Made by a program: the position numbers and the translations under genes. DNA of 64,000 nucleotides, from NCBI RefSeq assembly GCF_000002425.4, contig NC_037271.1, forward strand, positions 13,058,014 to 13,122,013, written 5' to 3'. This stretch comes from Physcomitrium patens (Eukaryota; Streptophyta; Bryopsida; Funariales; Funariaceae). Shown in pieces: positions 1,102 through 60,270 of this stretch. The notes under the pieces were generated by a model. That model worked only from the letters and a program-made list of their open reading frames with translations, was not told the DNA's origin and did not search any database. How positions within the stretch are numbered: the first letter of the stretch is position 1; every line of letters begins with the position of its first letter.

Positions 1102-1112
1102 ACTCTTATCAA
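1102..1112 (-). promoter_or_regulatory. Self-primer binding site of element D (decayed)
   Basis: On the minus strand, 2 nt after the LTR, lies TTGATAAGAGT. It pairs with the predicted transcript start inside the LTR (1,288-1,298) at 10 Watson-Crick positions plus one G-U pair. Spacing and position equal those of element E. The ATATCAGAGC-like motif follows a few bases later. Confidence 0.6.
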
Positions 1113-1114
1113 TC

Positions 1115-1663
1115 TGTCAAGGACATGAACTGAAAGATGATGCATAAACTAATGAAATCCGTATCAAAGAAAAAGTGACAAAATAGAAATAAGAAAGTAC
1201 ATATATTAAAAAGAAACCAGAATGGCTTATTGCCAAAAGACAAGAAAACTTGAGACTCTTAAAACTAGACTAGAAACAAGAAAGGAATTGATAAAAGTGA
1301 AGAAGGCTTCATTCTTGCCTCTATATATAATTTCTAATTAAGAATTATGTAGCAATGTTCTATAGGACCTCTAATATGTGTTGACTTTGCAGGACACATG
1401 TCTTAGCTTACAAGGTAAGTTTTCTATATGTGGGCCATATATGAAGCTTGTTCTTTAAGCTATTAATAGGTGTGGTACATGGCCAATTTATTGACCATGT
1501 TTCTAATCCAAAAAATCAATTAAAGATACTTATAAAGTCAAAGCAACATCTATGAAGCTTCTAAAAAGCTATTATAGAAGATATTATGGAATTGATCTAC
1601 TTTTACCTACTATTATCTAAATCATATAAGTAATTATTGGTTTACATGTGTATGTTTGTGACA
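1115..1663 (-). repeat. 5' LTR of element D (549 bp)
   Basis: This minus-strand LTR is bounded by TGTCA and CTTGACA, like the LTR of element E (59,696-60,257), with clear similarity throughout. A TATATATA box sits near 1,325 and the predicted transcript start near 1,298. The right boundary is the TGACA end at 1,663. The partner LTR lies outside the window, so target duplications cannot be checked. Confidence 0.85.
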
Positions 1664-5406: not shown

Positions 5407-5479
5407 GTGCATTTTAAGGATTATAGTAATATAAAAATAGAAGCTTCAAAGTATTATATTTGAAAGCATTGAATAAGGG

Positions 5480-5880: not shown

Positions 5881-6088
5881 AATTGAGATAAGTTGAGAAA
5901 GAAGCCGTTGCTAAGAATTATTGAAGAATTTAAGGATTTTAAAAAAAATAATATTATAAAAAGAAATTATAGAGGTACAAAAGGGGAAGTACTTTTGAAA
6001 GATGCAGATACCTTTGATATAAGTTTTATTAGTATTTTTGAAAATAAAAGTTTTAAATACAAGAAAATTCAAGATTTGAAAAGAAAAG

Positions 6089-6090
<2 letters not shown>

Positions 6091-6129
<39 letters not shown>
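6091..6129. repeat. (TA)n microsatellite inside decayed pol of F
   Basis: About 19 TA units. They translate as an Ile-Tyr run and create a spurious ORF. Confidence 0.95.
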
Positions 6130-6132
<3 letters not shown>

Positions 6133-6753
6133 ATTAAAAAATAATTATGTAAGTTAATGACATTATAAGATGATGAGAGGATTTTAGATATTTATGAAGA
6201 AAATGGATTGGAAGATTTTTGAGAATTAATTGTATTTATTGGATTAAAAGATGATAATAAGATTATAAAAATTCAATCAATAGAGGATTATTCAATACTT
6301 GAATTTTTTCAAGTACTAAAAGTTATTGTAGAAAAAAAATATAAAACAATAGAGAAAAAAGTAAAATCTATTGTCAAACCTTTATTAAAAGATTCTATAA
6401 AATAATTAAAAGGCATCAAAAAGAGAGAGTTTAAGAGATCTTAAGAATATTGGAAATCAATTTATAAAAGAAAATTTTGAAGAATTGAAGATTAGATGTC
6501 TTAACTTATAAGAAAATTATGTAATTATGATTTTTTTTAAATCTATAATTCTTTGTTATTAATAAAAATTGAATATTTTAAAGAAATATTTGTAAAACAT
6601 GGTGAATCATTTACCTTTGGACCTTATGAGATAAAATGTGTAAATCCTAATATTATTGCTCCTATGATTATCTTCAAAGCATCACATGTGCTTTGGAACT
6701 TAAGGCCAATTTTTAAACTTATGGCATACTTGCTTAAATTGATAGAATTATTA

Positions 6754-6756
<3 letters not shown>

Positions 6757-6792
<36 letters not shown>
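6757..6792. repeat. (TA)n microsatellite inside decayed RT of F
   Basis: About 18 TA units, sitting between the L-I-E-L-L-K and I-L-E-P-S blocks of the former RT. Confidence 0.95.
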
Positions 6793-6795
<3 letters not shown>

Positions 6796-6850
6796 AATAA
6801 AGATTTTAGAGCCTTCTTTTGTACCATATTCTAATTGTTCATTTATAGTA

Positions 6851-8453: not shown

Positions 8454-9875
8454 ATAGTACCTAAAAAAAAATATTATTACATTTTATTCAAGATATGTAG
8501 CCACAAAATGCAATAACTATTAAAAATATAGATATAAGACCTTTAATAGATAAGTTTATTGAAGCATTTGGAAGAAGAGCAATTTATTGAATAGATGATT
8601 TATATTTAGGCTATGATCAATTTTAACTTGTATGTGGAAGTTAAGATCTAAAAATAATAAAAATATCACTTGGATTACTTCAAATATGTATTCTTTTATA
8701 AAGTGCTACAAACTCAATTGTACATATGATGAATAGAATGAACAAGGTATTGAAAGACTTTATTTTTAAAAAGTTATGTCATTTTTAGATGTTGTTCCTA
8801 TTAAAAGATGTAAAAAAGAAGAAAAAATGAGACTCCAGATCTACTTATATATATCAAGTATAACAATATGTACTCTTGTATTATAAGTATATTTCTAATT
8901 ATATACAAGATTGTAAAAAGATTTTATCTCGACTTGAAGAAATTCATCTTATACTTTTGAAAGAAAAATCTACATTTGAAGTATAAGAAGTTATCATTAT
9001 TGGATATTTATAAGGATTTTATTAAAAAAAACCAGATCCAAATAAAGTTAATATAATTAAAAAGATAAAAGATATATATTATTTTTTAACAAAAGAATGC
9101 AAGTTTTTAGGAGCTTGTATATTTTTTCATATATAGATTCTTCATTATGTTCATATAAAAGATTCATTATATGAATTATTATCTAAAGATTATCAATTTA
9201 AATAGAAAAGAATGCATATTGAAGCAATAAAAAAGCTAAAGATATTAATATTGAAACATCCAATTTTAAGAAGAATTAATTAAGAATATAATAGACAAAT
9301 AATACTTATTATAGATATTAATCTTATTACTATTGAATGGCCTATGGATTAAGATGGTTTAAGTTGAAACAAATTTGCAATATGATTTAGAGCTAAAGTT
9401 TTAAGTACTTGTCAATATCTATATTTACAAGTCAAAAGAGAATTATGAAAGGTTGTTTTGGCTCTAAAAGCTAAAAAAGATTATTTGATTAGTATAGTGG
9501 TAGTAATTGAAATAGATTACTTGCTATTGCTTAAAATGATTGTTAATTGTTCAATACCAAATATTACAATATTAAAATGAATTGTTTATATCAAATCATT
9601 AAATCTAGAATTTAGGCATATTGTTAGAAAAGAAAATTTGGTGGCAAACATGTTGTCTCAAGCAAGATATGATAGAGAAGATAAGATGGTTGAAGACATT
9701 GATGATATAGGATCAAAATTCTATTTAGTATCAAATCTTAGCAAAGAAGATAATTTTTTTTGAAGAGCTTTATAAAAGAAAATTAGTAGATATTGGTTAT
9801 TATTTGAATACCTTGATTAAAAAAAAATTAGTCTATTAAAAAATTTAAATGAATAAAAAAATAATTTATACTTGT

Positions 9876-11552
9876 TGTTAACTTAGTTATTATAAGGTAT
9901 ATAAAATTTGAATCAAAATTAGTGATTCAATTATTTATTATTGAATTTTTAATCTTCTATAGAATTATTAAGAATTTTATTTTAGATTTAAGGTTCAATT
10001 ATAGATTGATTAGGATTAATTTAAGATTTTATTAAAATTTAATATTTTTTAAAAATTTAGTTAGAATTTAGGATTTTATTTGGATTTGATTAAGATTTAA
10101 GAAGGATTTAATTAAAATTTGACTGAGAATTGATTAGGATTTTTCTAAGATTCATCTAAGATTTTATTAGGATTGATCTCGACTTTAGGATTTTATTAGA
10201 ATCTATTTAAGATTTGACCTAAGATTTTATTAAAGTTCATTAAGATTTCAATTAGAATTAAATGAAGGCACAAAACTATGTACTTACTATGATTCTTGGA
10301 TTCTTTTGTAGATTGGATAAAGGTATTTCAGAGAAAACTTCAAAAAATATTTTTAGGCATTAATTTCATGTCGTTTAAATAAATATTGAGATTTTGAAGG
10401 ATTTTTAAAATTAGTGATGTTCTTGGTAGGATTAAAATTTGAAAAATAAAAATATATTTATAAATTTGAAGATTTCTTAAGTTTTATAGTATGTACACAA
10501 GTGAAATTTGGGAAATGTATTGGTGTACTTATTGTAAATGTATATGCAAATTTTGAAATCAATCAACCATTTAGATTGAATTATATGAGGATTTTTGTAG
10601 ATTGAGGTTTTAAAAATTGAAATTTGAGGGTCAATGAGTGTTTATAAGAACTTCAACAATTTGTCAATTAGATTGAAGTGAAAAAAATTTATATGGATAC
10701 TAGACTTGATTTTTAATGTTTGGATGAAAATTGAGAGCAATTCAATGGTTCAAAAAAGATACATTGGCACTAAGAATTCAACATTCAGGTTGGAGTATGA
10801 GGCCACCTAACATCCAATAAGATTATCTTGCATTTCTTTCAGATGATAAGTAGGATTGATTTCATCTTTCTTAAGTTTGTTTCTACCTAAGATATTAAAA
10901 AATATGCAAATTTTGAGTTGATATCAATAGTTTGAGCATTAATTGTTGATGTTCCATTTTGCTATAGATTTTGTTAAGAGTTTGATTAAGATCTAAGGTT
11001 TGATTAGGATTTGGTTTACAATCTGGTCTAAGATTTTGTAAGGATTAAGATTTTTTTAAGATTTGATTTAGAACTTGACTAGAATTTTATTATGATTTAT
11101 TTAGGATTTATCTAGGATTTTATTAGAATTCGACCTAAAATTTGGATATGGTTCAATTAAGATTTTAATTATGATTTCATCTAAAATTTGGTTAAAAATC
11201 AATAAGGATTTTAATTAATATTATATTAGAGTTTTTATTTTTAAGATTATTTATTATTTCTTTAAATTTTCTATTTCTAATATTTCTTTAAGATTATTGT
11301 TATTTTTTTAAAGATTTATTTTTATATTTTTTAAATATTTCTTATTATTTTTTTTGAGATTAAATCATGACTTCTTTATATTTCTTTTGTGACTTCTTTC
11401 AAATTTATTTCAATAGGTTAAAGTATGATTAGATTTATTAGAGATTACTTAAAGTTTATTTAAGATTCTATTAGTCTTGATAGAATTGTTGTTCCATTTT
11501 TACTTACCTTCCACAGCTACATGTTTCGTGTATTTTCAAAAAAAAAAACACA
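9876..11552 (+). repeat. Right LTR of element F
   Basis: This segment shares its start (TGTTAAC...), its GATTAGGATTT-type arrays and its end (CTTCCACAGC..., then ACACA) with the left LTR. About 700 bp near 10,264-10,960 has no counterpart on the left and may be another insertion. A copia RNase H scrap begins immediately after its end. Confidence 0.55.
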
Positions 11553-11830
11553 TCTAATATGACAACATCTTATTTATGAACTTGGATTTGGAGAAAAAAA
11601 ATCTACTACTATTTAGTGTGATAATTAAAGCTCCATCAAAATATCAAGAAATTTAGTATTCTACAACAAAACTAAATATTTTGAAGTTGATCTTTACTTT
11701 ATTTGTCAAAAAGTAAAAGATGGTACTATTAAAATACAATTCAAAGATTTTGTTGATCAATTAGTAAAAAAATTTATGAATGTATTAGATATGCTAAAAT
11801 TCAAAAAATAAAAAAATAAAATTAATTCTA
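11553..11830 (+). pseudogene. Ty1/copia RNase H fragment
   Basis: The plus strand encodes C-D-N-[stop]-S-S-I-K-I-S-R-N, then N-K-T-K-Y-F-E-V-D, then V-K-D-G-T-I-K-I-Q. This is the classic C-terminal copia RNase H pattern (CDNQ-S, TKHI-E-V). Only the end of pol is present, directly after the right LTR of F, so F may have inserted into this older copia element. No copia LTR was recognised. Confidence 0.7.
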
Positions 11831-12979
11831 AGATAATAAAAGATGAATTATCATATACTCAATTTAACTTTAAAATCCTAAATTAGAAATATTTATCTAG
11901 ATAAACTTAGCCTTGATGTAAAAAATCCTTTGTCTTGCTCTAAGACTTGATACTCTTTTAATGAACATTGTAGTAATCAACTATCTTGTACTCATACTCT
12001 ACCCATGAAGGATAGATATTTGGTCGTCTTTTCACATATTCAACATAATAATGCCTTCTAATCAATGATGCTAGTTCTTTTGAAGACATCTACAAAGATG
12101 TTCATAAGTTAAGTAGAAAACAACTACCTCAAAGATCAATCACTGATATACCAATATATGTGATTGCTTAGCTTAATACTTGTTCTACTCTCAAAAGATC
12201 AAATGTTCTATCACCACAATCAACTTAACAATATATCAATGAAAGAATAATAAGCTTGACCACAATAATAATAATAATAATAAGACATAGATCTATATCC
12301 AGCTTTATATCAGTAGCATATTTCAAACTAAACTCTAAAAAAGAAATATATATAAAATTATAGATTTATTAGCAATAAATCACACATTTGTTGGAATTTG
12401 TCCATAAGTATTGTACAAATACAAAACTATAAAATTCAAGCAAGAAGAGATGTTATTAATTTTTGTAATTATTTTTTTTATTCATCTTTGTTAAACTATC
12501 TTCTTATAGTATAAAAACTCAATTTCTAGCCATTCATAAGTAGTGCTTTTGATTTATACTAAGATACTTATTATTAGCTATTTTATTAATTGATAAAATT
12601 AATCTTATTCTTCCTATTCAATTGGCCTACGTTATTCAATCATATTTTTTTTTCTAACTTTGATTCATACAAAACTTATTTGAACACAAACTTAATAGTT
12701 ATATAGATTAAGAAGACAAGTTAAAAACTTTTTATTGATATAAAAAAAATATTGAAAATATACATCAAGATTTATAATATCTATTCATAGAAATATATAT
12801 ATATATAAGAAAATTTTAATGAGATCCATTCTTTTACTAAATCAATCTACCTTTAATGAAGAATATGATAATGATGATGAATGTAGTTGGTTTTCATTGG
12901 TTCTAAATCTAGTAGTAAAAGAATAAATCTAAAGATCTTTTTTTTCTTTTTTTTCATTCATAATGCTTAGAATGGATAG
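11831..12979. other. AT-rich stretch, no gene seen
   Basis: Low-complexity AT-rich sequence with a short (AAT)n run near 12,264-12,284 and a short (TA)n near 12,794. It may include the remainder of the copia element, but no LTR, domain or host gene could be supported. Confidence 0.5.
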
Positions 12980-13488
12980 ATATCAAGGACATGAATCTTA
13001 AAGAAAGAAATTCTATACATACTCTTGTATCACTCAAAGATGATATAATATTAAACTAGAATGACTATTATTAAAGATAAGAAGACTAGAAAGTCTTGAA
13101 ATAAGACTAAAGACTAGAAAGGCATTAGCAAGAGTGAAAAAAGCATCACTCATGTCTCTATATATACTCTTAATTAAGAGCTATGTGATAATGTCCTATA
13201 GAACCTCCAAAATATGTTGATTTTGTGAAACTAGTATCTTTACTTATAAGATAAGTTTTCTATATGTACCCCATATAGTTAACTTGTTCTACAAGCTATC
13301 AATATGTGATTCACTTATTGATCAAGTTTCTAACCTACCAAATAACTACAAACATATGTAAAATCAAAACAACATCCATGAAGCTTTTTAGAAGCTTTTC
13401 TATAAAATATTATAAAATAAATTTATTTTTATCTACTTCTATTTAAATATATAGAGAAATATTATTATAAATATGTATATCCATGATA
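12980..13488 (-). repeat. 3' LTR of element K
   Basis: Minus-strand LTR of the E family: the TGTCAAGG start is TATCAAGG here, and the other end lies at the purine-rich AGAAAGAGATATAA tract that marks the polypurine tract. It aligns with LTRs D, C and E across the TATA and start-site region. Confidence 0.8.
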
Positions 13489-13559
13489 TTATATCTCTTT
13501 CTAAGAAAAAGTTCCATAAGGAGTGATCATCATATATTGAAAAAATCCAAAATATAATA

Positions 13560-13775
13560 AATCGTATTTACCATATATTTTAATCTTTGTTCTCTTTAAA
13601 GATGATTGATAGGTTCTCTCAACCATTAATAGTCTCTCATACTAGGACAAAAAGACTACCATATTACTTGATCATTGTTGAGGCCTTCATAACTTCTTTC
13701 AAATAAAACATTTAAAATATTGTCAGGAGTTATTCCTACCTTTGATAAAATCACCAAATATTTGGGATTTCTTCT
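13560..13775 (-). pseudogene. Accessory ORF (ORF3) remnant of element K
   Basis: Between the end of pol and the 3' LTR, the minus strand encodes a stretch matching ORF3 of element A. It has K-Y-L-V-I-L near 13,755 and then, further on, W-L-R-E-P-I-N-H-L and R-E-Q-R-L-K (compare W-L-Q-G-S-M-N-H-L and R-E-Q-Q-L-E in A). Stops are present. Its position is the same as in A and C. Confidence 0.65.
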
Positions 13776-13959
13776 AAGATCATAATATTAAATATATTAT
13801 ATCTCACCATCTATTTAGAGAAGGACATATTGTTCTTGAGGATATTTATTTTGAGGATCTTCATTTTGAAGATTGTGACAATCATAATATTTCATTTGAT
13901 AACTCAATAAGTAATAGTTCTTCAATTAAATGTGTTGGTTGTTGATTCTCCTCACATTA

Positions 13960-16900
13960 ATATCACAAATATACAGGAGTAACAAAAAAAAATAGAAAAT
14001 AGAATATTATCTTCATTTTATCTTGTTTTTTTTTATAGTAAAGATTTTTTATTCTTCAGCTTGATTTTAATAGATGATGTCATTAAAAATCTTCAATTTT
14101 TTTTGTTGCATTCGTAAAGTTCTTTATTGGCTTCTATATGCATTCATTAATATCATATTGATATCAATGAACAAGATATTTTAATCTATTTTGGCATTGT
14201 ATTAAATTTAAGACTTCTTTTACCTCAAATTCTTGATTATTATGTATTTTTGTAGAAAGAAGTGGCATTTGTCTTCTTTCCAAAATATTCACTATTTTAT
14301 ATAGCTAAAAAAGAGACATGTGGAATATAGGATGAATCTTCAAAGAATTTGGTAGATATAATCAATAAGCAATAAAATTGACTTATTCACAAATAGAAAA
14401 AGGTCCAAGCTTATAATAGTCCAACTTATCATAAAGACAAGTAGTCTTGATATTGCAACAAAATAGCTATACTTTATTATCCATAGTGAATTATGGTTAT
14501 TTCTTGTAATAAGCATCCACATTGATCTTTTGTTGTTCTCGAGCTTCTTTTAACTGTGCTTTTATTGTAGTATGTAGCTCTAACAAATAATTTAACAAAT
14601 CTTCTATCATAGGATTATCAATTTTTGAAAAGTCAAAAGTATCAAGTCATGGATGATAACCATAATTGATAAAGAAAGGTATTTTTTGAGTAGAAGAATG
14701 TACCAAATTATTATATACAAACTCTACCAATGACAAAAGAGTTGTCCAATCATCTTGATGATAATTGATAGTACATCTTAAATACTACTCCAACACTTAA
14801 TTCACCTATTCAATTTGCCTATTAGTTTGAAGATAAAAAATCAAAGAGACCTTTACATCCACTTTTAGAATCTTAAAAAATATTTTTTAAAATCTCAATA
14901 TACATTGAATCCTCTTATATAATATAATATCTTTAGATAATCAATGATAGCAATAGATGTTTTTAAAAAAAAAACTTAGTTGTTTCTTCAATTATGAAAG
15001 ATTTTGTATAAAGTATAAAATATTCCATCTTGGTAAAACAATCTTCTATCACAAATATAAAATCATAGAAAGCTAAGATTGAAAGATCTATGTTAAAATC
15101 TATAGAAATAAAAAAAAAACTATGGTTATTTTGAAATAGATAATGGCTAAAAAAATCTATAAGATTGATGACGAGATGTTTTTGATCTTAAAAAAATATT
15201 ACATGATTATAAAAATTCTTTAACTACCTTTTAAATTTGAAGCCACCTAAAATCTCTTGATATTAGCTCCAAAGTCTTACTATATCTAAAATTTCTGATT
15301 GTTGAAAAGTCATGATGAGCTTGAAGAACACGTAATTGTACTTTGTCTTGTACAATATATAAATGCCACTCAAAATAAAATAGATTATTCTTAAACTTCA
15401 ACTTGAAAGTATTATGAAATTTAGAAGAATTATTCTTGATATCATAAATAAGAGGATCAAAAGATATACTTGATTGAATTTGCTTAACAAAGAATAAATC
15501 AACAATCAATATTGATTTTATTTTTCAAAGATGAAAATAATGTAGCTTCAAAAAAATCATTCTTTATTTATTAAAATTTGTATCTCTTTCTTTTGGTATA
15601 AAATAAAAATATCTAAAAACAACATCTCACAAATCTTGTTATTTATTGCATTGATAAATAATCTTAAAATTAAATCTTGATAAAGACATGGTCTAACATG
15701 CTTAGCAATGATTCAAAATATGTATTCATATGAAGTACTTAAGTTTCTTGTAATCTATATATATATGATAACTAGATTAAAAGTCCATTTTAGATAATAA
15801 TGTCATTTTTGAAATGAATCCATGATTGTAAGAAGCTCTTTGTTATAGATCACTTAGTTAATCTTGGGCACTAAAAATTTCTTAGAATAAAAAGCTATTG
15901 AGTAGAGCTTGTCATTTGCTCCCATTTGTGATAAAACAACATCTATTGCAAAGTTTGGTATATTTGTTTCCATAAAAAATATCTTCAAAAAATCAATACA
16001 ATACAAGATTAATGTAAAAATAAATATTGCCTTTAAGGCTTCAAAAGATCCTTTAGCTTCTTTGTTCCACTCAAGTTTGTCTTTATATGTCAATCATATA
16101 ATAAGAGTTGCAACTTCAAAAAAATTCTTGATAAAGATTTGATAATAATTGACAAATCTCAAAAAATATTGAATATTTTTAATTATTTTTGAAATCTTAC
16201 AATTTATGATAGTTTAAAACTTCTTAGAATCTATTATAAGACCATTGTTTGAATTGATATATCTTAAGAAGTCAACTTGAATAATATAAAATATGCACTT
16301 TTTTTTATCTTGGCATATTATCCTACATCTTTTAGTTTTTATAACATACAATGGACATGAGCTTCATAAAATTTTGTATTCTTAGAGCAAATCAAGATAT
16401 CATCTAAATAATAGATAATAAAATCATCAAGCGACTTATAAAAAATATCATTCATTAGATGTTGGGAAGTAGTTATCACATTTGAAATACCTATATCTGG
16501 TTCTTAATATAATTTTTTATTTATTTTTTTTAATGTATATTAGATTATATGTTCTTTATAGATCTATTTTTGTATAAATCTTTGTTTAATTTAGTTGATT
16601 AAAAAGTTCTTAAATCATTAATAGAAAGTACCTATTTTTTATAGTGATCTTGTTGAATCATCAATAGTCCATACACATCTACAAAGATTTTTTTTTTTTC
16701 TTCACAAATAAGATAGGAGCCTCAACTTGAGATTTAGAATAGTGTTTGAAGTTTTTAGCTAAATTTTCATGAATATATTTCTTAAATATAGCCAATTTTT
16801 TTTGTGATAGACTATAGATTGGTCAAAATGGTGGTTGAATTCTTTCTTAAAGATTAATAGAACAATCATAAAGATGATGCTTTGGATGAATATCTATATA

Positions 16901-17493
16901 TTTTTTTTTTTCAAAGATGTCTTGATAATCTTGGTATTAGTTCAGAATGTTATTTGAAATCTTTTCTCCATCAACAATAGGTGTGGCATATATAACAAAA
17001 GTTGACCCTTCTTTTATAGCATACATGAAAGTTCTTGCACCTATCAATAATAGTTTACATATATTAATCTTATGGATTTTTACTTGCTTAGAAAAATCTT
17101 AGGCTAAATCATGGAAAAAATCAAGATTATAAGAAACTCAATCTATCTAAAGGTAATATCTTTCTAACTATGATAATCCTAAAATAATTAGATTAATAGG
17201 AGATCTAATCACATTAAATATTACTAAACTATTATAACTATTAATTGCTACTTCTACATGAATAGTTTATGTATAACATCTCTAGAAGATAATAAATGAC
17301 TATCTATTACTTCTACATGTATATCTTTGATTTTTTTAATTAAAAATATATCTTATTTTTTGACAAAATCTTTATCTATAAAATAGGCTAAAGCTCTTGA
17401 ATCTAATAAGATTAAGACTTTGTGATTTTTTAGTCTTAAACAAACTTCTATTGTAAAACAAGGTGAAGGATTTAAAGAAAGAATAAGACCTTT
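13960..17493 (-). pseudogene. Protease-pol pseudogene of element K
   Basis: Read on the minus strand: protease near 17,400 (L-L-D-S-R-A-L), RT with the palm motif Y-L-D-D still present at about 16,394-16,412, RNase H with A-I-D-V-V-L-S-Q-M at 15,854-16,093, then integrase. The zinc-finger part of integrase (L-Q-A-H-H-D-F, E-L-I-S-R-D-F) is at 15,231-15,509. The order matches the pol of element A. Many stops and small indels show it is dead. The upstream end is the A insertion point. Confidence 0.8.
17489..17493 (+). repeat. Target-site duplication of A, left copy (CCTTT)
   Basis: CCTTT abuts the 5' LTR and is repeated at 23,628-23,632 right after the 3' LTR. Removing A and one copy restores a continuous element K. 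Confidence 0.9.
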
Positions 17494-17532
17494 TGTTAGG
17501 GACATAGTCCTTAGAACCTTCTAGAGACAAGT

Positions 17533-17753
17533 TTCTAGAATCTTCTAGAAGCAAGTCTCTGGAACTTTCTAGAAGCTTCTTAGTTGGTAGAAGATGTTAG
17601 GAACATAGTCCTTAGAACCTTCTAGAGATAAGTTTCTAGAACCTTCAAGAAGCAAGTCTCTAGAACCTTCTAGAAGCAAGTCTCTAGAACCTTCTAGAAG
17701 CTTCTTAGTTGATAGAAGTTGCTTGAGAAGCTTCCTAAATAGGAGTATATATT
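17533..17753 (+). promoter_or_regulatory. Heat-shock-element ladder and TATA box of element A
   Basis: Perfect alternating GAA/TTC units at 2-nt spacing occur at 17,533-17,550 (4 units), 17,562-17,579 (4), 17,634-17,651 (4), 17,663-17,675 (3) and 17,687-17,704 (4). Three or more such units are the known binding site of heat-shock factors. TATATATT follows at 17,746-17,753. Heat-inducible transcription is inferred, not shown. Confidence 0.75.
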
Positions 17754-17777
17754 GGAATCGAGGCTGAAGAGTTCTTC

Positions 17778-17788
17778 AGTCTCGACAA
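17778..17788 (+). promoter_or_regulatory. Predicted transcript 5' end and self-primer of element A
   Basis: AGTCTCGACAA starts 32 nt after the first base of the TATA box at a C|A step, the usual initiation context. It is perfectly complementary to 17,912-17,922. It also forms the right arm of an inverted repeat (left arm TCGAGGCTGAAG, from about 17,757). Confidence 0.7.
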
Positions 17789-17911
17789 TACATCTCTTAG
17801 AGCTCTAGCTCACCTCTCTGGTGTTGTTTACATTTAATTAATTTAATTCTTGTCAGTTCTTCCTGAACTTCTTGTTAGATCTTGAGTTTGTATTTCTGTG
17901 TCCATGACAGT

Positions 17912-17922
17912 TTGTCGAGACT
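17912..17922 (+). promoter_or_regulatory. Self-primer binding site of element A
   Basis: TTGTCGAGACT lies 2 nt after the LTR end and pairs over exactly 11 nt with the predicted mRNA start. No tRNA 3'-end complement (TGG...) is found at this position. The same architecture occurs in element E with covarying bases. Confidence 0.75.
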
Positions 17923-17965
17923 TCACTCACCTCAGATATCAGAGTTAGTTTCTTCCTTGTTAGAG

Positions 17966-18145
17966 TGCGGATTACCCCTCTGCTTGGAAGTGTACTAGCA
18001 TTTTAGAGGTTGCGGATTACCCTCCTCTAAACTGATACTTTTTTTGTTATAATATTGGAGTCTTATTCTTCTTTGAGAGAGTGGATTACCCCTTTTCTTG
18101 AAGTTCTTAAGGCATTTTAGAGGTTACGGAGTACCCTCCTCTAAA
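17966..18145 (+). promoter_or_regulatory. Duplicated leader hairpin of element A
   Basis: Two copies of a module occur in the untranslated leader. Each has GTGGATTACCCC-like sequence, then a hairpin with stem TTTAGAGG/CCTCTAAA and a 14-nt loop: TTGCGGATTACCCT at 18,002-18,031, and a variant at 18,116-18,145. Element E has one copy (60,311-60,376) with a compensated stem pair. A packaging or translation signal is possible (inference). Confidence 0.55.
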
Positions 18146-18189
18146 CCAATATTGTCTTCTTGTAGAGTCATTTCTGTCCTTCTCTTAGA

Positions 18190-19215
18190 ATGGCCGGAGG
18201 CCAAGACATTAGTATGATGGAAAGTTTGGAGTCCAAGTTGGATGCTATCATGAATGCCTTTGCTACGTTATCGCAAAGAACTGCAGAGATTGAAGAAGTC
18301 GTGGCAAGGCTTCATAATGATGGAGCATCTGGGATAGCACAATCTAGGTTGCACCAGCCTCAAACTTCTATACTTGGAGAAGCAACTTTGCCTCAGGTTC
18401 GATAAGCACCATTGGTTCTATAACATAAGGAGCCCCAAGTTAGCCTTCCGGACAAGTTCGATGGTATGCGTTCCAAGTTTTGAGGATTTGTCAATCAAAT
18501 CAGGTTGATAACAGTTTTACAGCCCGAATGCTATCCAATGGAGGAGTCACGTATTGGGCTTGTTGGAACCTTACTTACAGGGCAAGCTCTATCATGGTTT
18601 GCTCCTTTGTTTGAGAAACCATCGTCCATACTAAACAACTTTGAAACCTTTTTGGAGGCGTTTGCGGAAGCATTTGCTGAACACAAAAAGATTCGATGGA
18701 CTACAACAAATATCCAGTCACTACGACAAGGGATGCACTCTACATCAGTCTATGCATTGGACTTTAGGCAATTAGCATGCGACATCAATTGGGACGAAGA
18801 AGCATTGATGAGTCAATTCTATTGGGGTTTAAGGAATGATGTGAAGGATTTGCTATTAACTCTTCCTGATCCACAAACGCTCAACAAAGCTATTAGCCAA
18901 GCTGTGAAGTGTGATAATCGCCTATTCCAACGCTGCCAAGACCAACGTTTAAGACAACATACGGTTTGCCACGCCCCAACTATGTCGGCAAGCAGCGTGA
19001 ATACACATTCAGAGGTAGAAGACATGTAAATTGATGCGGTACGTGTCAAATCCCTTATCCAAGAAGAAAAAAAGCGACGTATAGAAGAAGGTCTATGCTT
19101 GTATTGCTGTGAAGAAGGCCACAAAGTTGGAAACTGCCCCAAGAAGCAAAATCGATGTATTGTCAAGACTAGGGGCGAGTTTATTCAGAAAAACGAGGAT
19201 GCCCAGCCACAATAA
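18190..19215 (+). pseudogene. gag of element A (stops in frame)
   Basis: Capsid-nucleocapsid gene, 342 codons counting from ATG 18,190 to TAA 19,213. It contains the gag domain of gypsy elements (G-Q-A-L-S-W-F-A-P-L near 18,580) and a CCHC knuckle C-L-Y-C-C-E-E-G-H-K-V-G-N-C near 19,095. In-frame stops lie at 18,403, 18,421, 18,481 and 19,027; at 18,481 and 19,027 element E still has CGA and CAA. The next gene, pol, lies in the -1 frame and overlaps its end. Apart from the stops the frame is intact, so decay is recent relative to C, K and F. Confidence 0.9.
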
Positions 19216-19220
19216 GAATC

Positions 19221-22200
19221 GTGCGGCTGGACAGTGAAATATCGCAACAACAACCAGGTTCCTTTCTTTCCGCTCAACCTGCCCTTTGCTTTACAATCCC
19301 TTTGTTTATTGGCCCTCAGAAACTAAGAACCTTAGCATTATTAGATTCAGGAGCATCTGCTTGTTTCTTAGACGAAGAATTTGCGAAGCGTCATAAGATC
19401 CCTTTAGTACAAAAATCCAAACCTGTTCACGTTGAGGTCATAGATGGGCGACTTTTATTGTCTTGTAGAGTCACCCATGACTTAAAACCTATAGAAGTGA
19501 CGTTTAAGGGCCATAGTAGTCATATTATTTTTAATATTATTAGAATTCCATCAAATCCTATTATTCTTGGTCTTTCTTGGTTGGAAAAGCATAATCCATC
19601 CATAGATTGGAGGTTGCGGAAGATGACCTTTCCCATAAAACCACCTAAAAGTAAGCCTAGTAGAAAACCCTGAATAGAGAAATCCTTATTCATTGGAGCA
19701 AGAGCGTTTATGAGATCGTCCAAGGAAGGCACACCGTTTGTAATTTATGCCGCTCCAACTACCGGGGAGAAGATCTCGACAACAAGTATACTTGAGCAAT
19801 ATAAGGATTTTAAAGACGTGTTTCAAAAGAAGAATGCCGACATGCTACCGGAACACCGACCATATGATTGTGCCATAGACTTGCAAGAAGGAGCACAACC
19901 GCCTTTTGGCCCAATCTACAATCTATCGCAGACGGAGTTGGCGGAGTTGCGAAAGTATATCAACGAGAATCTAGCCAAGAACTTCATCCGTCATTCAAAA
20001 CCGTCAACTGGAGCACCCATCTTATTTGTGAAGAAGAAAGATGGCTCGTTGCGGATGTGCGTGGATTATTGAGGCCTCAACAAGATAACAAAGAAGAATC
20101 GTTATCCATTACCCTTGATTTTTGGTCTCTTAGAACAACTTGGACGTGCAAGGATCTTTACAAAAATTGATCTAAGGGGAGCTTACAACCTCCTAAGAAT
20201 CAATGAAGGAGATGAGTGGAAGACAGCGTTCCATACAAGGTATGGCCATTTTGACTATAATGTCATGGCCTTTGGTCTTACCAATGCTCCAGCGGTCTTT
20301 CAACATATGATGAATGACATTTTTCGAGAGCACCTTGACGATTTTGTTGTCATCTATTTGGATGATATTCTGATATTTTCCAAAAATGAGGAAGAGCATG
20401 AAAAGCACATTCGTTTGGTCTTGAAGAAACTATGCGAGCGAGGACTATATGCCAAGTTGGAGAAGTGTTTATTTCACCAAATAGAGATGGAATTTTTGGG
20501 ATTCATTGCGACTACGGAAGGCTTGAAGATAGATCCCAAGAAGGTGGAAGCAATCGTGTCCTGAAAGGTTTCGAAGATGGTTAGAGACGTACAATGCTTT
20601 CTTGGTTTTGCCAACTTCTATCAGATCTTCATCAAGAATTACTCTCAAGTTGCTGCTCCTCTCACTCGGTTGACATGCAAGGATAAGCTGGAATGGGAAC
20701 CTCTAGTAGAAAAGGCGTTTCAAGACCTGAAGACCACATTTACTATGGCTCCAATCTTGGTACATCTAGACTTTACAAAGGCCTTTTATTTAGAAACTGA
20801 TGCTTCGGATTTTGCTTTGGGAGCTGTACTTTCACAAATGGGAGAATATAAGAAGCTCCATCCAGTTGCATTCTATTCTCGAAAGTTCTTTGGTGCTGAA
20901 ATCAATTATGAGATCCACGATAAGGAACTTCTTGCTATAGTGGATTCTTTCCAAAAATGGCATCACTTTCTTGAAGGAGCTGCACACCCAGTGACTGTAT
21001 ACACAGATCACAAGAATTTGGAGTATTTCATGTCAGCTCGAGTTCTAAATCAACGTTAAGCTCGATGGAGTATGTTACTATCTAGGTTTGATTTTGTTAT
21101 CACTTATCGGCCTGGAAAGCAGCAAGGACTATCTGATGCCTTATCAAGGAGATCGTATCTTGTACCAAAGGCTGGAAAAGCAATGTTTGATCAACAATGT
21201 ACGACATTGTTGAATCCAGAGCAATTTCAGCTTTGTGCTACTATTGTGCTAATTGATGCTGACTTCCTGAATCAGATACGTGTCGTGACTATTGAAGATT
21301 CAGTAGCCATTGATATTAAGTAGCATGCCAATGATGACAAGTTCAAGGTGGAGGGAGAACTTTTATACTTTGAGGAGCGGTTATATATCCCAAAAGGACC
21401 AGCACGACTCCGAGTTCTTCAATCTCGCCATGATTTTCCAGCTGCGGGACATTTTGGATTCAACAAGACCTTGGAGCTTATTTCTTGAGATTTTTGGTGG
21501 CCCCAAATGTGGAAGGATGTGAAAGATTTTTTCCTCTTTTGTGACATCTGTTCAAGATTCAAGAATCCTCGGCATCGCCCTTATGGACTCCTACAGCCAT
21601 TGCCGATTCCATGTCGACCATGGTCTTTAATTTCCATGGACTTCATCACGGACCTGCCATCATCGAACTCATTTGACAACATCTTTGTCGTGGTAGATCG
21701 GCTTACAAAAATGGCACACTTCGTCCCTTGTAAGAAAACATCATCCAATGAAGTCACAGCAAGGCTCTTTCTCGATAATGTGTATCGATATCATGAACTA
21801 TTAGATGATATCGTATCAGATCGAGGAACCCAGTTTGTATCAAAGTTTTGAAAATCTCTCTTTGAGATACTGAAGGTGGATATCAAGCTTTCTTCGGCTT
21901 TTCATCTTCAAACTGACGGCCAAACGGAATGGATGAACTAAGTCTTGGAACAATACTTACGATGCAGCATCAACTATCAGCAAGACGATTGGACCACATA
22001 TCTATCGCTAGCTGAGTTTGCATATAACAACACCCTCCATGCGTCAACTCAATACACACCATTCTTTTCCAACTATGGGTATCATCCGAAGATTGATTTA
22101 TTGAGTCCATCAAAAAATAACAATCTAGCAGCTGAAGGATTTGGAAAACAACTATCAGAGCTTCAAAATACGTTGAAGCTTCAATTACAATCCGCTCAAG

Positions 22201-22691
22201 AATCCTACAAGGCGTCTGCAGATAGATTTTGAAATCAAGTACCTACTTTCAAAATTGGAGATAAAGCATGGCTTCTTCGACGGAATATCAAGACCAAGCG
22301 ACCATGTGATAAGTTGGACTATCGAAGATTGGGACCATTTATCATCCAAAAGCAAATCAATCCAGTGGCGTACCGTCTGGAATTACCGGCTTCTATGAAG
22401 ATACATCCAGTCTTTCATGTTTCTTTGTTGGAGCCTTATCGAAAGTCGTCTTTTCCTGGAAGAGTGCAATGTCCACCACTTAGTATTGAGATCGAGAACC
22501 ACGAGGAATACGAGGTTGAAAAGATGTTGGATTCATGGTGAAGGTGGGACAAGTTAGAGTATCTTGTTCATTGGTGTGGCTACGACATTAATGAGCGAAC
22601 GTGGGAGCCAGCTAAAAATCTCACCAATGCGCCACAAAAGGTAGAAGAGTTTCATCAACAACATCCTCATAAACCTAAGCCGGTTCGATGA
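19221..22691 (+). pseudogene. pol of element A: PR-RT-RH-IN-chromodomain (stops in frame)
   Basis: A single frame holds, in order, protease (L-L-D-S-G-A, about 19,338), RT with I-Y-L-D-D at 20,352-20,366, RNase H (L-E-T-D-A-S-D near 20,790; Y-T-D-H-K-N near 21,000), integrase with HHCC finger (about 21,410-21,560) and D-D-E residues (D-F-I-T-D, S-D-R-G, Q-T-E-W), a G-P-F module, and a C-terminal chromodomain (E-Y-E-V-E-K near 22,510; Y-L-V-H-W-C-G-Y near 22,560; T-W-E-P). Ten in-frame stops begin at 19,671, 20,070, 20,562, 21,057, 21,321, 21,486, 21,849, 21,939, 22,230 and 22,539. The true end is TGA 22,689. It lies in the -1 frame relative to gag. Confidence 0.93.
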
Positions 22692-22849
22692 TAGCTTCCT
22701 TTTGAAGCTTGCTCACCCAAGAATATAAGAAAATGGAAGAGCACCACCAAAGTTTGTAGTTGATGTAGTTATTTTCTCCAAGATAAAATAGAATTTTTCC
22801 AGTAGCCATAGTTTGGTCTTCTGATATTGATAGCCAAGAGATAGATACT

Positions 22850-23179
22850 ATGCTAGTCAGATTATCTCAATCGACTACCTCACGAAAGCGACCCCGAGAT
22901 GAAGAACCGCCTATACCACGACGACGACGGAGGATACTAAGTAATCGATCACTGGTGATTGTATTTGAGTCTAAGCCTGCTTACTATGATTAGCCAGAAG
23001 GCATATTTGCAGGACAATTTCACAATGAAGACACGAAAGTTCATGCTTGGTCAGAAGTTGAAGGAGTGGGCCACTACCGTTGGCTTCAAGGGTCGATGAA
23101 CCACTTACCTCGTGAACAACAGTTGGAGTTCATAGCAGACGTTATGCGACAGATCTTCATTTTCTTACGTTGGTATTGA
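22850..23179 (+). pseudogene. Accessory ORF (ORF3) of element A, between pol and 3' LTR
   Basis: One frame is open from 22,787 to 23,179 except for a single TAG at 22,991 (one transition from CAG). From the first ATG (22,850) it would give 109 residues. The N-terminal part is strongly basic (R-K-R-P-R-D, then five consecutive Arg at about 22,918-22,932), as in nuclear-localisation or RNA-binding segments. The C-terminal part has L-V-I-V-F-E-S, H-Y-R-W-L-Q-G-S-M-N-H-L and R-E-Q-Q-L-E-F. Counterparts occur at the same place in elements C and K. I recognise no family. Whether it is a separate ORF or was once joined to pol is open. Confidence 0.6.
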
Positions 23180-23215
23180 TTAACAATAACATTACTTCTC
23201 AAAGACCTCGAAGCT

Positions 23216-23229
23216 AAAGGAGGGGGTGA
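23216..23229 (+). promoter_or_regulatory. Polypurine tract of element A
   Basis: AAAGGAGGGGGTGA abuts the 3' LTR, the expected place and composition for the plus-strand primer. Confidence 0.85.
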
Positions 23230-23627
23230 TGTTAGGGACATAGTCCTTAGAACCTTCTAGAGACAAGTTTCTAGAACCTTCTAGAGACAAGTCTCGAGAA
23301 CCTTCTAGAAGCTTCTTAGTTGCTAGAAGATGTTAGGAACATAGTCCTTAGAACCTTCTAGAGATAAGTTTCTAGAACCTTCTAGAAGCAAGTCTCTGGA
23401 ACCTTCTAGAAGCTTCCTAATTAGTAGAAGTTGCTTGAGAAGCTTCCTAAATAGGAGTATATATTGGAATCGAGGCTGAAGAGTTCTTCAGTCTTGACAA
23501 CACATCTCTTGGAGCTCTAGCTCACCTCTCTGGTGTTGTTCTTGTATTCATCTGATTAATCTAGTTCTTGCCAGTTCTTCTTGAACTTCTTGTTAGATCT
23601 CGAATCTGTATTTCTGTGTCCGTGATA
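23230..23627 (+). repeat. 3' LTR of element A
   Basis: Matches the 5' LTR apart from scattered transitions and the loss or non-gain of one 24-bp HSE unit. Its end is GTGATA (CA to TA). Its copy of the self-primer reads AGTCTTGACAA, with the CG decayed. CCTTT follows. Confidence 0.95.
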
Positions 23628-23632
23628 CCTTT

Positions 23633-24742
23633 ACGAGAAATTACATAAGTTTCTACTTGCTCGGTCTCTATTATAGTTGAAAAAACTCATTTTCCAATAC
23701 ATTGTCTTCTTTAGCAAGTATGCTTCTTATTTTCTAATTATATTGCTTCTTTAAATAATATTAAATAATATACTTGGATTCTCCACAATATAAGTACAAA
23801 TCTTTTTGATAATGATGAGTCTTTTCTTCCTCAATAAAAGATTTTAAACGTATCATATCAATTTGCATTGGTTTTGACCTTGATAAATAAGTTTCAAAAA
23901 AATTAAGAACTGCCGTCAATACTTGATTTATTCTTTTTTGGCCAAATCTTTATTTTTGATATCTTTCAAATAATCAATTATTGCATACAATAGATTGAGT
24001 AATAAATTGTTTGTAAGATTTTGCTTTTGATATTATCAATAACAAATCTTTGATGTTGTCTTTCAATCCATATCAAAATTGATTGATAAGGGCTTTTTCA
24101 TTCTATTCTATGTTGCAAAGAAGGTTTTGGAATTCAATAGCATGTATGATAATTGACCATGATCCTTGTTGTAAAAATAAGAGCTTTGTGTTTGCTATTC
24201 TTTCTTAATTACTTTCTTTGAATGTGGTTGTAAATACTTTTAGAAATGAATTCAAATCATAAAAGAGTCGTGAATCTTTTTCCATCAAAGGTGCAACCAA
24301 GAGAGAGCACTTGTAGATAAAAGTGCACCTATGAATCCAACTTTAATAAATCCATCAGAGATTTGAAGGGATGCAACTTTAAATAGAGCTTCACTTGTTG
24401 CATAAATCTTCAAAATTTTGATCTTATTCAATCAAATTTCTTGGGCACACTAATCCTTATTCTAGTTGCACTTATAGAAGCAAAAATCCTTAGATTTGGT
24501 TATGACATTGATCTACTTGTTCCCTTCAATTGCACAACTTTTTGATATAGACTTTAAACTTCTTCTATAGAGATAGGATTAATGTTTCCTTGATTGGTGT
24601 TGATAATGCATGAAATTTCTATCCTATAAGTATTGACAAGTTTGTGAAGATTTGTAATAGTTACAAATCTATTTTTATTTCTACCAAGTGTAGCATCCAT
24701 AATTTTTTCTTCTATTTCAAACAACTTAACAAATAAATCCAC
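23633..24742 (-). pseudogene. gag pseudogene of element K
   Basis: Read on the minus strand, this begins near 24,742 (K-L-F-E-I-E-E, compare K-L-L-E-M-K in E) and runs to the CCHC region near 23,800. It then reaches the gag-protease junction, where element A inserted. It is heavily broken by stops and small changes but collinear with the gag of E. The 5' leader (24,743-24,964) is degraded, and the primer site after the LTR reads TTGACAAAAAT. Confidence 0.75.
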
Positions 24743-24964
24743 AAGTCAAATTAAAAGAGGATAATCTACAATCTCTAATGTCAAAGGAAAATTTCTACAA
24801 AGAAGGATAATCTACTCTCTTTAAGAAAATAATTAGTATTAAAAAACTAAATAATTTTTTTAAAGGTGGAAAATTTGCAACCTTCAAAATACAACAATAG
24901 AAGTAGAGTAATCTACTCAGTTCTAAAACAAGATAAGAATAATGAATTAGGATTTTTGTCAAAC

Positions 24965-25381
24965 TATCAAGGATATGAATCTCGAAGAAAGAATCCTCAA
25001 TACACTCTTGTGTCACTCAAAAGAACTAGAAAGTCACTCAAAGATGATATAAAATTAAACTAGAATGGCTATTGCTAAAGACAAGACTAGAAAGTCTTGA
25101 AAGAAGACTAAAGATTAGAAAGACATTGACAAGAATGAAGAAGGCTTTACTCTTGCCTCTATATACAGTCTTAACTAAGAGCTATGTGGTGATATCCTAT
25201 AGGACCTCCTAAACATATTGACTTTGTAAGACTCATATTTTAACTTATAAGATAGGTTTTCTATATGTGCACTATATAGTTAGCTTGTTCCACAAGCTAT
25301 CAACAAATGGTTGATTTGTTGACTAAGTTTCTAACCTACCAATCAACTACAAACATATATAAAGTCAAAGCAGTATCCATG
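24965..25381 (-). repeat. 5' LTR of element K, truncated
   Basis: Minus-strand LTR matching 12,980-13,488 from its primer-site end (TATCAAGG) through the TATA region. It breaks off at 25,381 inside U3. The following sequence (TGGTATGTAATAAAATTT, then a (TA)n) has no LTR similarity. Confidence 0.8.
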
Positions 25382-42271: not shown

Positions 42272-42709
42272 TGTATTATAAATGTTACCTAGGTAATATG
42301 AATAAGTAGAAGTACATAAAAGTAGATTAATTTCATAATACCTTTTAGAAAAACTTCTTAGAAGCTTTCAAGATGTTGTTTTAAATTTTCATGTGTTTGT
42401 AGTTGATTAATAGGTTAGAAACTTGATCAACAAGCTAACCATGTACCACATATGTTGATGGCTTGCGAAAATAAGCTAATTATGTGGCGCCATATAAAAA
42501 ACTTGTCTTGCAAGTTAAGATACATGTCATACAAAGTCAACACGTTATTAGAAGTCCTATAGAACATCACGACATAGATCCTAAAGAGAGAGTATATATA
42601 GAAGCAAGAATGAAGTCTTTTTCCCTCTTATCAACTCCTTACTTGTTTCTAGTCTAGTTTCAAGTGTCTTTGATTTCTTTATCTTTTAGCAATAGCCATT
42701 CTAGTTTAT

Positions 42710-42750
<41 letters not shown>

Positions 42751-42830
42751 TTTTCTATTTCTATTTTGTCATATTTCTTTGAAAAAGCCTCTTTTGTTTA
42801 TTTGCTTTCATTGAATTCTTGTCATTAAAA
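42272..42830 (+). repeat. 5' LTR of element C
   Basis: Aligns with 49,374-49,926 and LTR E. The first ~20 bases are missing at the island border. The LTR end is decayed (CATTAAAA where E has CCTTGACA). A (TA)n has grown at 42,715-42,748. The primer site follows at 42,833 (TTGACATGAAT). Confidence 0.85.
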
Positions 42831-43055
42831 AATTGACATGAATACACTTATAATATCAAAGCTTTGTCTTTTTTTAATTAAAAGTGGATTATTTCTTTTT
42901 CTTATTAAAATTTAAGCATATTAAGAGTTGCAAATTATCCTCTTCTAAATTGATGTTGTCATTAGTATTTTTTTCTTTATTTTTAAGTCTTTTCTTTTAT
43001 TTGTCTTGAGCAATATTATACATCTTCTCTTCTTTAAGTGCTATTATCGCATAGC

Positions 43056-55483: not shown

Positions 55484-55488
55484 ACTCA

Positions 55489-59695: not shown

Positions 59696-60257
59696 TGTCA
59701 CGGCCATAATCATGTAAGCTAATAATTACATATAGAAATAGGTAGAAGTAAGTAAAAGTAGATAAAAGTAAGTTAATTCTATAATATTTAATATGGAAGC
59801 TTCTTAGAAGCTTCCGAGATGGTGCTTTGACTTCATAGGTGTCTTTAATTGACTTTTTGGATTAGAAACATGGTCAACAAGTTGGCCATGTGCCACACAT
59901 GTTGTTAGCTTGAAGATCAAGCTAACTATGTGGCCCACACGTAGAAAAACTTGCCTTGTAAGTCAAGGCATGTGTCCTACAAAGTCAACACATATTGGAG
60001 GTCCTATAGAACGTCACCACGTAGCCCCTAGTTAGATAGTATATATAGAGACAAGAGTGAAGGCTTCTTCACTCTTGTCAACTCCTTTCTTGCTTCTAGT
60101 CTAGTTTCAAGGGTCTCTAGTTTTCTTGTCTTTTGGCAATAGCCATTCCAGTTCCTCTTTCGATATATATACTTATTTAAATATATTTTGTTACCTCTCT
60201 TTGAGTGAAGGCTCACTTGTCTGAATTATTTTTTTCATCGAGTTCTTGTCCTTGACA
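59696..60257 (+). repeat. 5' LTR of element E (562 bp)
   Basis: TGTCACGGCC...CCTTGACA. U3 contains the inverted repeat GAAGCTTCTTAGAAGCTTC near 59,813. The TATA box is TATATATA at 60,040-60,047, and an inverted repeat spans the predicted start site. Confidence 0.9.
60050..60081 (+). promoter_or_regulatory. Start-site inverted repeat and self-primer of element E
   Basis: GACAAGAGTGAAG (60,050-60,062) and CTTCACTCTTGTC (60,067-60,079) form a perfect 13-bp inverted repeat with a 4-nt loop. The predicted transcript start is A60,071, 31 nt after the TATA start and preceded by C. The first 11 nt, ACTCTTGTCAA, are complementary to 60,260-60,270. Confidence 0.7.
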
Positions 60258-60259
60258 GA

Positions 60260-60270
60260 TTGACAAGAGT
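60260..60270 (+). promoter_or_regulatory. Self-primer binding site of element E
   Basis: TTGACAAGAGT, 2 nt after the LTR end, pairs perfectly over 11 nt with the predicted mRNA start. Ten bases further on lies ATATCAGAGC (60,280-60,289), which resembles the core of the initiator-tRNA primer site but lacks the TGG. Confidence 0.75.

What the first reader, a model, noticed from the sequence alone, without database searches (positions are those of the whole stretch)
17778..17922. Tf1-like self-priming signature in chromovirus A
Seen: AGTCTCGACAA (17,778-17,788), starting 32 nt after the TATA box at a C|A step, is perfectly complementary to TTGTCGAGACT (17,912-17,922), which lies 2 nt after the 5' LTR. 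The pairing is exactly 11 nt and does not extend. A chance match at one preset position would be 1 in 4^11. Known: in fission-yeast Tf1 the first 11 nt of the mRNA fold back on a site beside the LTR and prime reverse transcription instead of a tRNA. Inference: this plant element self-primed. I know of no described case in plants, but cannot search.
Basis: partly seen in the sequence, partly recalled or inferred. Interest (0 to 1): 0.92.

Follow-up and report, generated by a model that had tools for sequence, protein, structure and literature searches.

The report
Self-priming signature of an LTR retrotransposon
A decayed jumping gene, probably from a moss, carries the sequence signature of copying itself into DNA by using the folded-back start of its own RNA as primer; that signature was already predicted for such elements in print, but here its two halves change together between families, and a hairpin over the presumed start site changes with them.

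Summary
AGTCTCGACAA (17778-17788) is perfectly complementary to 17912-17922, 32 nt after TATATA and 2 nt after the 5' LTR. It is not chance. A diverged relative in the window (E4) has the same geometry with another 11-mer, compensated at all 3 changed positions. Six contigs from two other assemblies repeat it, five with different letters. In 200 kb plus the window, searched by similarity, 5 of 5 A-type copies (A included) pair along all 11 nt if G.U counts; of 6 E4-type copies, 3 do. Self-priming as in Tf1 is the best reading.

It is not new for plants: Neumann et al. 2019 (PMC6317226) predicted it for the moss/club-moss Tcn1 clade.

Two features I did not find in the passages read. (1) The 11-mer has a third partner, a U3 arm just upstream, giving a 12-13 bp hairpin across the presumed start; it could mask the 3' copy of the primer. 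One self-primed relative (L006) lacks it. (2) A tRNA-Met-like site (TGGTATCAGAGC, 12/12 in 3 copies) begins 21-25 nt past the LTR, perhaps a displaced older PBS. Transcript ends were not mapped.

The parts
17489..17493 (+). left target site duplication CCTTT of element A (right copy 23628-23632)
17494..17909 (+). 5' LTR of element A (TG...CA)
   Evidence: 364 of 391 aligned bases identical to the 3' LTR, 31 gap columns
17746..17753 (+). TATA box TATATATT, 32 nt before the 11-mer
   Evidence: TATATA (19) or TTTATA (1) at the same distance in 20 of 20 fetched genomic loci
17758..17769 (+). U3 arm of the hairpin that spans the presumed start site (pairs with 17774-17785)
   Evidence: MFE -18.9; 0 of 2000 shuffles of the U3 part as low
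17778..17788 (+). self-primer 11-mer AGTCTCGACAA, presumed first 11 nt of the RNA
   Evidence: start site inferred
17912..17922 (+). primer binding site TTGTCGAGACT, 2 nt after the LTR
17934..17945 (+). tRNA-Met-PBS-like stretch AGATATCAGAGT (9 of 12 matches to TGGTATCAGAGC; core TATCAGAG 17937-17944)
18484..19029 (+). gag piece (Retrotrans_gag)
19173..19673 (+). protease piece (RVP_2)
20073..20564 (+). reverse transcriptase piece (RVT_1)
20565..21059 (+). RNase H piece
21489..21851 (+). integrase piece (rve, below its gathering score; H2C2 just above)
22233..22691 (+). integrase tail (SH3_Tf2-1) and chromodomain, in two open pieces
23230..23627 (+). 3' LTR of element A; hairpin 23470-23497, 11-mer copy AGTCTTGACAA 23490-23500
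13030..25381 (-). element E2 (approximate ends), into which A is inserted; 11-mer 25136-25126, PBS 24962-24952
1102..1319 (-). element E1: hairpin and 11-mer 1319-1288, PBS 1112-1102 (10 Watson-Crick + 1 G.U)
42603..42843 (+). element E3 (decayed): hairpin and 11-mer 42603-42634, PBS 42833-42843 (7 of 11)
60050..60081 (+). element E4: perfect 13-bp hairpin (60050-60079) and 11-mer ACTCTTGTCAA (60071-60081)
60260..60270 (+). element E4: PBS TTGACAAGAGT, 2 nt after the LTR end at 60257

Best explanation
Element A is a decayed copy of a Ty3/gypsy chromovirus that primed its own reverse transcription, as Tf1 does. Transcription starts at 17778, so the RNA begins with the 11-mer. These 11 nt fold onto the PBS 2 nt past the LTR, RNase H cuts after nt 11, and the freed 11-mer primes minus-strand DNA. 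Shown: the sequences, their geometry, and their joint change between families. Inferred: the start site, the cut and the priming. A second layer is inferred more weakly. The 3' LTR copy of the same 11-mer sits in the RNA next to a U3 arm that can lock it in a hairpin. The 5' copy lacks that arm because U3 is not transcribed there. So only an RNA that begins exactly at the start site would have a free primer; the 3' copy, and read-through transcripts, would be masked. The stated confidence is for the first layer.
For: Exact pairing and geometry. Compensation: A and E4 differ at 11-mer positions 2, 6 and 8; the PBS follows at 3 of 3 and the U3 arm at 3 of 3; L003 and L004 differ at position 5 and both follow. 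Own 11-mer x own PBS gives 10-11 Watson-Crick pairs in 9 of 10 elements of the matrix (E3 7); A against E4 gives 8, A against L004 5 (L006 has 12 of 12 and was left out of the matrix for its length). Relatives in other assemblies: L001, L003, L004, L005, L006, L012 have TATA 32-33 nt upstream, CA + 2 nt and a perfect 11- or 12-nt pair. Genome: AGTCTCGACAA 3629 forward and 3648 reverse, reversed control 47 and 38; 25 inverted pairs 134-140 bp apart among the first 100 places listed, 0 in the opposite order. Copies found by similarity: A-type 5 of 5 pair 11/11 with G.U (A included). Folding the 5' leader gives pair probability at least 0.95 at positions 2-9 in 8 of 8 elements. Hairpin: shuffles of the U3 part reach the MFE in 0 of 2000 for A, A's 3' LTR, L001, E4, L003, L004, L005, L012. 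A and L001 have a G.U pair in the hairpin at +3, as sense RNA would allow.
Against: No transcript 5' or 3' ends were available. E3 does not pair (7 of 11), and of 6 E4-type copies three pair at 7, 9 or 10 of 11 even with G.U. Within a class, specificity is weak: E2's 11-mer pairs equally well (10) with the PBS of E4 and E3, and E4's with that of E1. In E1 and E2 compensation is partial. L006 is self-complementary over 12 nt but has no such hairpin (0.63 of shuffles), and E1's is eroded (0.11). If the place of the hairpin is not preset, it is less striking: the best 13-bp match anywhere in 400 nt of shuffled LTR reached A's value in 14 of 300, E4's in 1, E2's in 18, E1's in 96, E3's in 300. In cofolding the PBS displaces the hairpin in E1, E2, L003, L004 and L006 (5 of 11); the hairpin holds in A, L001, E4, L005 and L012; E3 is mixed. 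The upstream pretzel helix of Tf1 is not seen in A, L001, E1 or L012. A tRNA-Met-like site lies nearby.
Confidence: 0.9

Rival explanations
1. The element is primed by initiator tRNA-Met at the TGGTATCAGAGC-like site that begins 21-25 nt past the LTR, and the 11-mer pair serves something else.
For: TATCAGAG is intact in 26 of 32 5' regions of this genome, between variable flanks; 12 of 12 matches to the plant PBS in L031, L036, L042; TGGTATCAGAGC is a known plant PBS (PMC7215508, passages).
Against: A tRNA primer there would leave more than 20 extra nt beyond the LTR's terminal CA, whereas the LTR ends 2 nt before the 11-mer site (inference). The relative L001 lacks the tRNA-like site (6 of 12 at best) but keeps the 11-mer pair exactly. 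11-mer and PBS covary.
Confidence: 0.05
2. The tRNA-Met-like site is a displaced fossil PBS, or an accessory site: the lineage was once tRNA-primed, and the self-PBS came to lie between LTR and old PBS.
For: Same place in A-type and E-type families although the spacer between varies; tRNA-Met is the most frequent plant PBS (39% of elements, PMC6317226).
Against: A dead site should decay, yet it is conserved. Part of it (GAGCTAG) can pair with R in A-type copies, which could explain part of the conservation. 20 of the 32 regions were chosen for intact 11-mers, and 7 were found with probes that contain this stretch. The tRNA gene of this genome was not checked.
Confidence: 0.4
3. The hairpin across the start site acts in DNA or in transcription (start-site palindrome), or in 3' end formation or strand transfer, not in masking the primer.
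For: It lies between TATA and start site and spans the start. A passage says that LTR promoters often involve a hairpin structure (PMC3601003, passages).
Against: The 11-mers differ at up to 7 of 11 positions between classes while pairing is kept (rows), unlike a fixed protein binding site; a G.U pair in A and L001 suits sense RNA. 3' end formation and strand transfer are not excluded.
Confidence: 0.4
4. The 11-nt pair is a chance match in a decayed AT-rich element.
For: A itself is decayed.
Against: Null mean 0.045 per set; genome-wide excess; covariation.
Confidence: 0.005

Closest known systems
Tf1/Tf2 of fission yeast and the Tf1/sushi group
   Same: First 11 nt of the RNA (here inferred) complementary to a PBS beside the 5' LTR; in Tf1 RNase H cuts between nt 11 and 12 (PMC7175516, passages); chromodomain; a helix between R and sequence after the PBS is possible in A (0.013 of shuffles).
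   Different: The upstream pretzel helix was not found in A or L001; it is strong in L003 and L005 and weaker in L004 and L006 (uncorrected for 20 tests). The U3/R hairpin is not mentioned in the passages I read; the original Tf1 papers were not held.
Plant Tcn1-clade chromoviruses (moss, club-moss)
   Same: Neumann et al. 2019 predicted self-priming for the majority of them and found the aromatic cage in 95% (PMC6317226, passages).
   Different: Their criterion was complementarity of at least 10 bp starting 0-5 bp after the LTR; hairpin and covariation are not mentioned in the passages I read; their additional files were not seen. Novikova et al. 2010 found no self-priming in SM-Tcn1 of Selaginella (PMC2864245, passages).
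RLG1 of Physcomitrium patens
   Different: Identity of A with RLG1 is inferred; no RLG1 sequence was compared. The paper's main text holds no 'PBS'.
TAR-lineage Ty1/copia elements (Houba, Osr-1)
   Same: Predicted self-priming in plants.
   Different: Different superfamily; not examined here.

Membership tests
Tf1/sushi self-primed chromoviruses | gag-PR-RT-RH-INT order of Ty3/gypsy | tested here: met
   Pfam on separate open pieces
Tf1/sushi self-primed chromoviruses | chromodomain at the integrase end | tested here: met
   PF00385 1.4e-12
Tf1/sushi self-primed chromoviruses | R start complementary to a PBS next to the 5' LTR | tested here: met
   that R starts there is inferred
Tf1/sushi self-primed chromoviruses | no tRNA PBS (TGG...) at the LTR junction | tested here: met
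   LTR is followed by GTTTGTCGAGACT; a tRNA-Met-like stretch begins at the 25th nt after the LTR
Tf1/sushi self-primed chromoviruses | three-duplex 'pretzel' leader | tested here: inconclusive
   post-PBS duplex possible in A (0.013 of shuffles), pre-PBS duplex not (0.85)
Tf1/sushi self-primed chromoviruses | RNA starts at the 11-mer; RNase H cleavage after nt 11 | not testable with these tools
   no transcript or biochemical data
Tcn1 clade (plants) | RT-INT phylogeny with Tcn1 and Tf1/sushi | tested here: inconclusive
   RT-only tree of 30 rows without named Tcn1 or Tf1 references; a hit named from a snake (P0118) falls in the same 21-row group (support 89/85) as A, L001, L006 and the L002-L007 clade
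Tcn1 clade (plants) | aromatic cage in the chromodomain | tested here: inconclusive
   read by eye (Y, W, Y at the places recalled for HP1); no alignment made
RLG1 of P. patens | sequence identity to RLG1 | not tested

The most novel reading that the evidence does not exclude
Self-primed LTR elements carry a start-site-spanning hairpin whose U3 arm masks every copy of the primer except one that begins exactly at the RNA's 5' end, so priming authenticates the transcript; and the moss families preserve, beside the self-PBS, the displaced tRNA-Met PBS of a tRNA-primed ancestor, recording the switch from tRNA priming to self-priming.
Probability: 0.25. Interest if true: 0.82.

Novelty: new variant of a known kind. 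Interest (0 to 1): 0.55.

Why it matters
How self-priming arose from tRNA priming, and how an element with two copies of its primer sequence uses only one of them, become testable here. If the family is RLG1, it is the most abundant and a transcribed element of a laboratory moss, so both can be tested in a standard plant. If the tRNA-Met-like site is a fossil, it also bears on whether these elements came from fungi, since Neumann et al. took self-priming as support for horizontal transfer.

Tried and rejected
Chance pairing: rejected by shuffles and relatives. tRNA priming at the 11-mer site: rejected, no TGG at the junction. Viral contigs for relatives: none confirmed. Rfam (gathering threshold) and tRNA scans of the window: nothing. 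Other repeats of the window (50890-55985, 3039-11553) as controls: ends not resolved. Upstream pretzel helix in A: not found. Genome-wide counts of the full pair, of self-PBS + TATCAGAG and of the leaders were asked for but not obtained, because the genome search answered only once; the genome's tRNA-Met gene was never asked for. Of loci L001-L015, 9 (L002, L007-L011, L013-L015) gave no convincing 5' LTR signature; L009 had two AT-rich 11-nt pairs that met the loose flags, which I set aside. In one search, BLAST pieces that did not span hairpin and 11-mer were dropped, and E2 counted there as LTR only.

Full report
Observation. Element A is an LTR element: 5' LTR 17494-17909, 3' LTR 23230-23627, TSD CCTTT on both sides. 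It is inserted in another chromovirus, E2, on the minus strand. Separate open pieces of A match gag, protease, RT, RNase H, integrase, the Tf2-type integrase tail and a chromodomain. The LTRs agree at 364 of 391 aligned bases, with 31 gap columns, and the coding region is broken into several open pieces, so this copy is old.

Is it chance? In 4 of 5 window elements with a 5' LTR, the best complement of the site at LTR+2 anywhere in the LTR is the 11-mer 29-32 nt after the last TATATA: A 11/11, E4 11/11, E1 10 plus one G.U, E2 10/11; E3 fails. A joint signature (TATA box, spacing, CA/TA end, 2-nt spacer, exact complement) gives 9 distinct sites in the window plus loci L001-L015 against a mean of 0.045 in 200 shuffled sets; one of the nine is an AT-rich site that I take as chance.

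Relatives. A scan of bacterial and archaeal assemblies with an RT alignment found 15 loci, apparently eukaryotic DNA mis-binned in metagenome assemblies (my inference). L001 is a close relative of A (81.7% identity over 3539 aligned nt). L001, L003, L004, L005, L006 and L012 have a perfect 11- or 12-nt pair, TATA 32-33 nt upstream and CA + 2 nt before the PBS; the other 9 loci show no convincing pair. Five of the six come from one Trichormus bin, so they are not fully independent. The letters differ: AGTCTCGACAA (A, L001), ACTCTTGTCAA (E4), AAGGTGAACAA (L003), AAGGCGAACAA (L004, L005, L012), ACTCTTGATCAA (L006).

Genome. The 11-mer occurs 3629 times forward and 3648 reverse, the reversed control 47 and 38. 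Among the first 100 places listed, 25 inverted pairs lie 134-140 bp apart and none in the opposite order. Of these 25 I fetched 20, so both 11-mers are intact by choice: all 20 have TATATA (19) or TTTATA (1) at -32 and CA or TA + 2 nt before the PBS. Less biased, 200 kb from two other contigs plus the window, searched by similarity to the 5' regions of A and E4: A-type 5' regions 5 of 5 (A included) pair at 11/11 with G.U (Watson-Crick 11, 11, 11, 10, 9); E4-type, 6 regions (E4, E1, E3 included), Watson-Crick 11, 11, 10, 9, 8, 7 and with G.U 11, 11, 11, 9, 10, 7.

A third partner. Positions +1 to +9 of the 11-mer also pair with a U3 stretch just upstream, giving a 12-13 bp stem with a 4-nt loop across the presumed start; in A, L001, E4, L004, L005 and L012 at least the last two bases, AA, stay free. 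Shuffling the 24-nt U3 part never reached the folding energy in 2000 trials for A, its 3' LTR, L001, E4, L003, L004, L005 and L012; E2 0.006, E1 0.11, L006 0.63. A weaker control, which asks only for the best stem anywhere in 400 shuffled nt, reached A's value in 14 of 300 and E4's in 1 of 300, and E3's always. In 23 LTR rows of the window and the 200 kb, +1 to +9 form 7-9 pairs with the arm in 11 of 11 A-type rows and 5-9 in 12 E4-type rows. Between A and E4 the 11-mer differs at positions 2, 6 and 8, and both PBS and U3 arm compensate at all three; between L003 and L004 at position 5, again both. In E1 and E2, which are decayed, compensation is partial. Because U3 is not transcribed at the 5' end, this hairpin can form only at the 3' end of the RNA or in read-through transcripts. 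I propose that it hides the 3' copy of the primer. Against this: L006 does without it, and cofolding favours the PBS over the hairpin in 5 of 11 rows, L003 and L004 among the intact ones. Roles in 3' end formation, strand transfer or transcription are not excluded.

A tRNA-like site. In this genome the core TATCAGAG lies 11-15 nt after the self-PBS in 26 of 32 examined 5' regions, between variable flanks; 20 of the 32 were chosen for intact 11-mers, 7 were found with probes that contain this stretch, and 5 are the window's. L001 lacks it. L031, L036 and L042 match TGGTATCAGAGC, the plant PBS named in PMC7215508 (passages), at 12 of 12, beginning at the 24th nt past the LTR; A has 9 of 12. That this is the initiator tRNA-Met site is recalled; the tRNA gene of this genome was not checked. 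Part of the region can also pair with R in A-type copies. I read it as a displaced older PBS or accessory site, at 0.4.

Known. Tf1 uses the first 11 nt and RNase H cleavage after nt 11 (PMC7175516, passages) and a three-duplex 'pretzel' (PMC10085805, passages and section 28 part 1). Tj1 is similar (PMC4600332, passages). Novikova et al. 2010 found neither tRNA nor self-priming in SM-Tcn1 (PMC2864245, passages). RLG1 of P. patens fits by abundance and chromodomain (PMC7466625, passages). Searches on self-priming with chromovirus, Tf1, moss, Tcn1, hairpin, PBS and stem-loop listed further papers that I did not open; in the passages read from six of the listed ones (PMC6317226, PMC2864245, PMC4600332, PMC7175516, PMC10085805, PMC3601003) I saw no U3/R hairpin of this kind, though PMC3601003 remarks that LTR promoters often involve a hairpin structure. 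Figures and supplements were not seen, and the original Tf1 papers are not held, so it may be described there.

Verdict. Self-priming is well supported as a sequence prediction (0.9) and already known in kind. The covarying hairpin and the neighbouring tRNA-like site are the parts worth following.

Noticed in passing
window 17937-17944, 60281-60288, 1091-1084 (-); loci L024-L043: Conserved TATCAGAG (tRNA-Met-PBS-like, TGGTATCAGAGC in some copies) 11-15 nt after the self-PBS.
   Followed up: partly
L001-L015: Contigs in prokaryote metagenome assemblies carry eukaryotic-type gypsy elements, apparently mis-binned host DNA; L002-L007 and L012 come from one Trichormus bin.
   Followed up: partly
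L003 702-854, L004 38-171, L005 84-258, L006 206-357: R +17 to about +25 can pair with the LTR end just before the PBS, like the upstream helix of the Tf1 pretzel, with different letters between families; L012 does not stand out.
   Followed up: partly
window 17962-18158: The leader of A has two copies (77% alike) of a unit with GGATTACCCC...TTTTAGAGGTTGCGGA; a related unit is in E4 at 60307-60389 (64%).
   Followed up: no
window 17494-17701: The U3 of A holds repeated AGAACCTTCTAGA-type units (read by eye).
   Followed up: no
window 12828-12924: AT-rich site that meets the self-priming signature; probably chance.
   Followed up: partly
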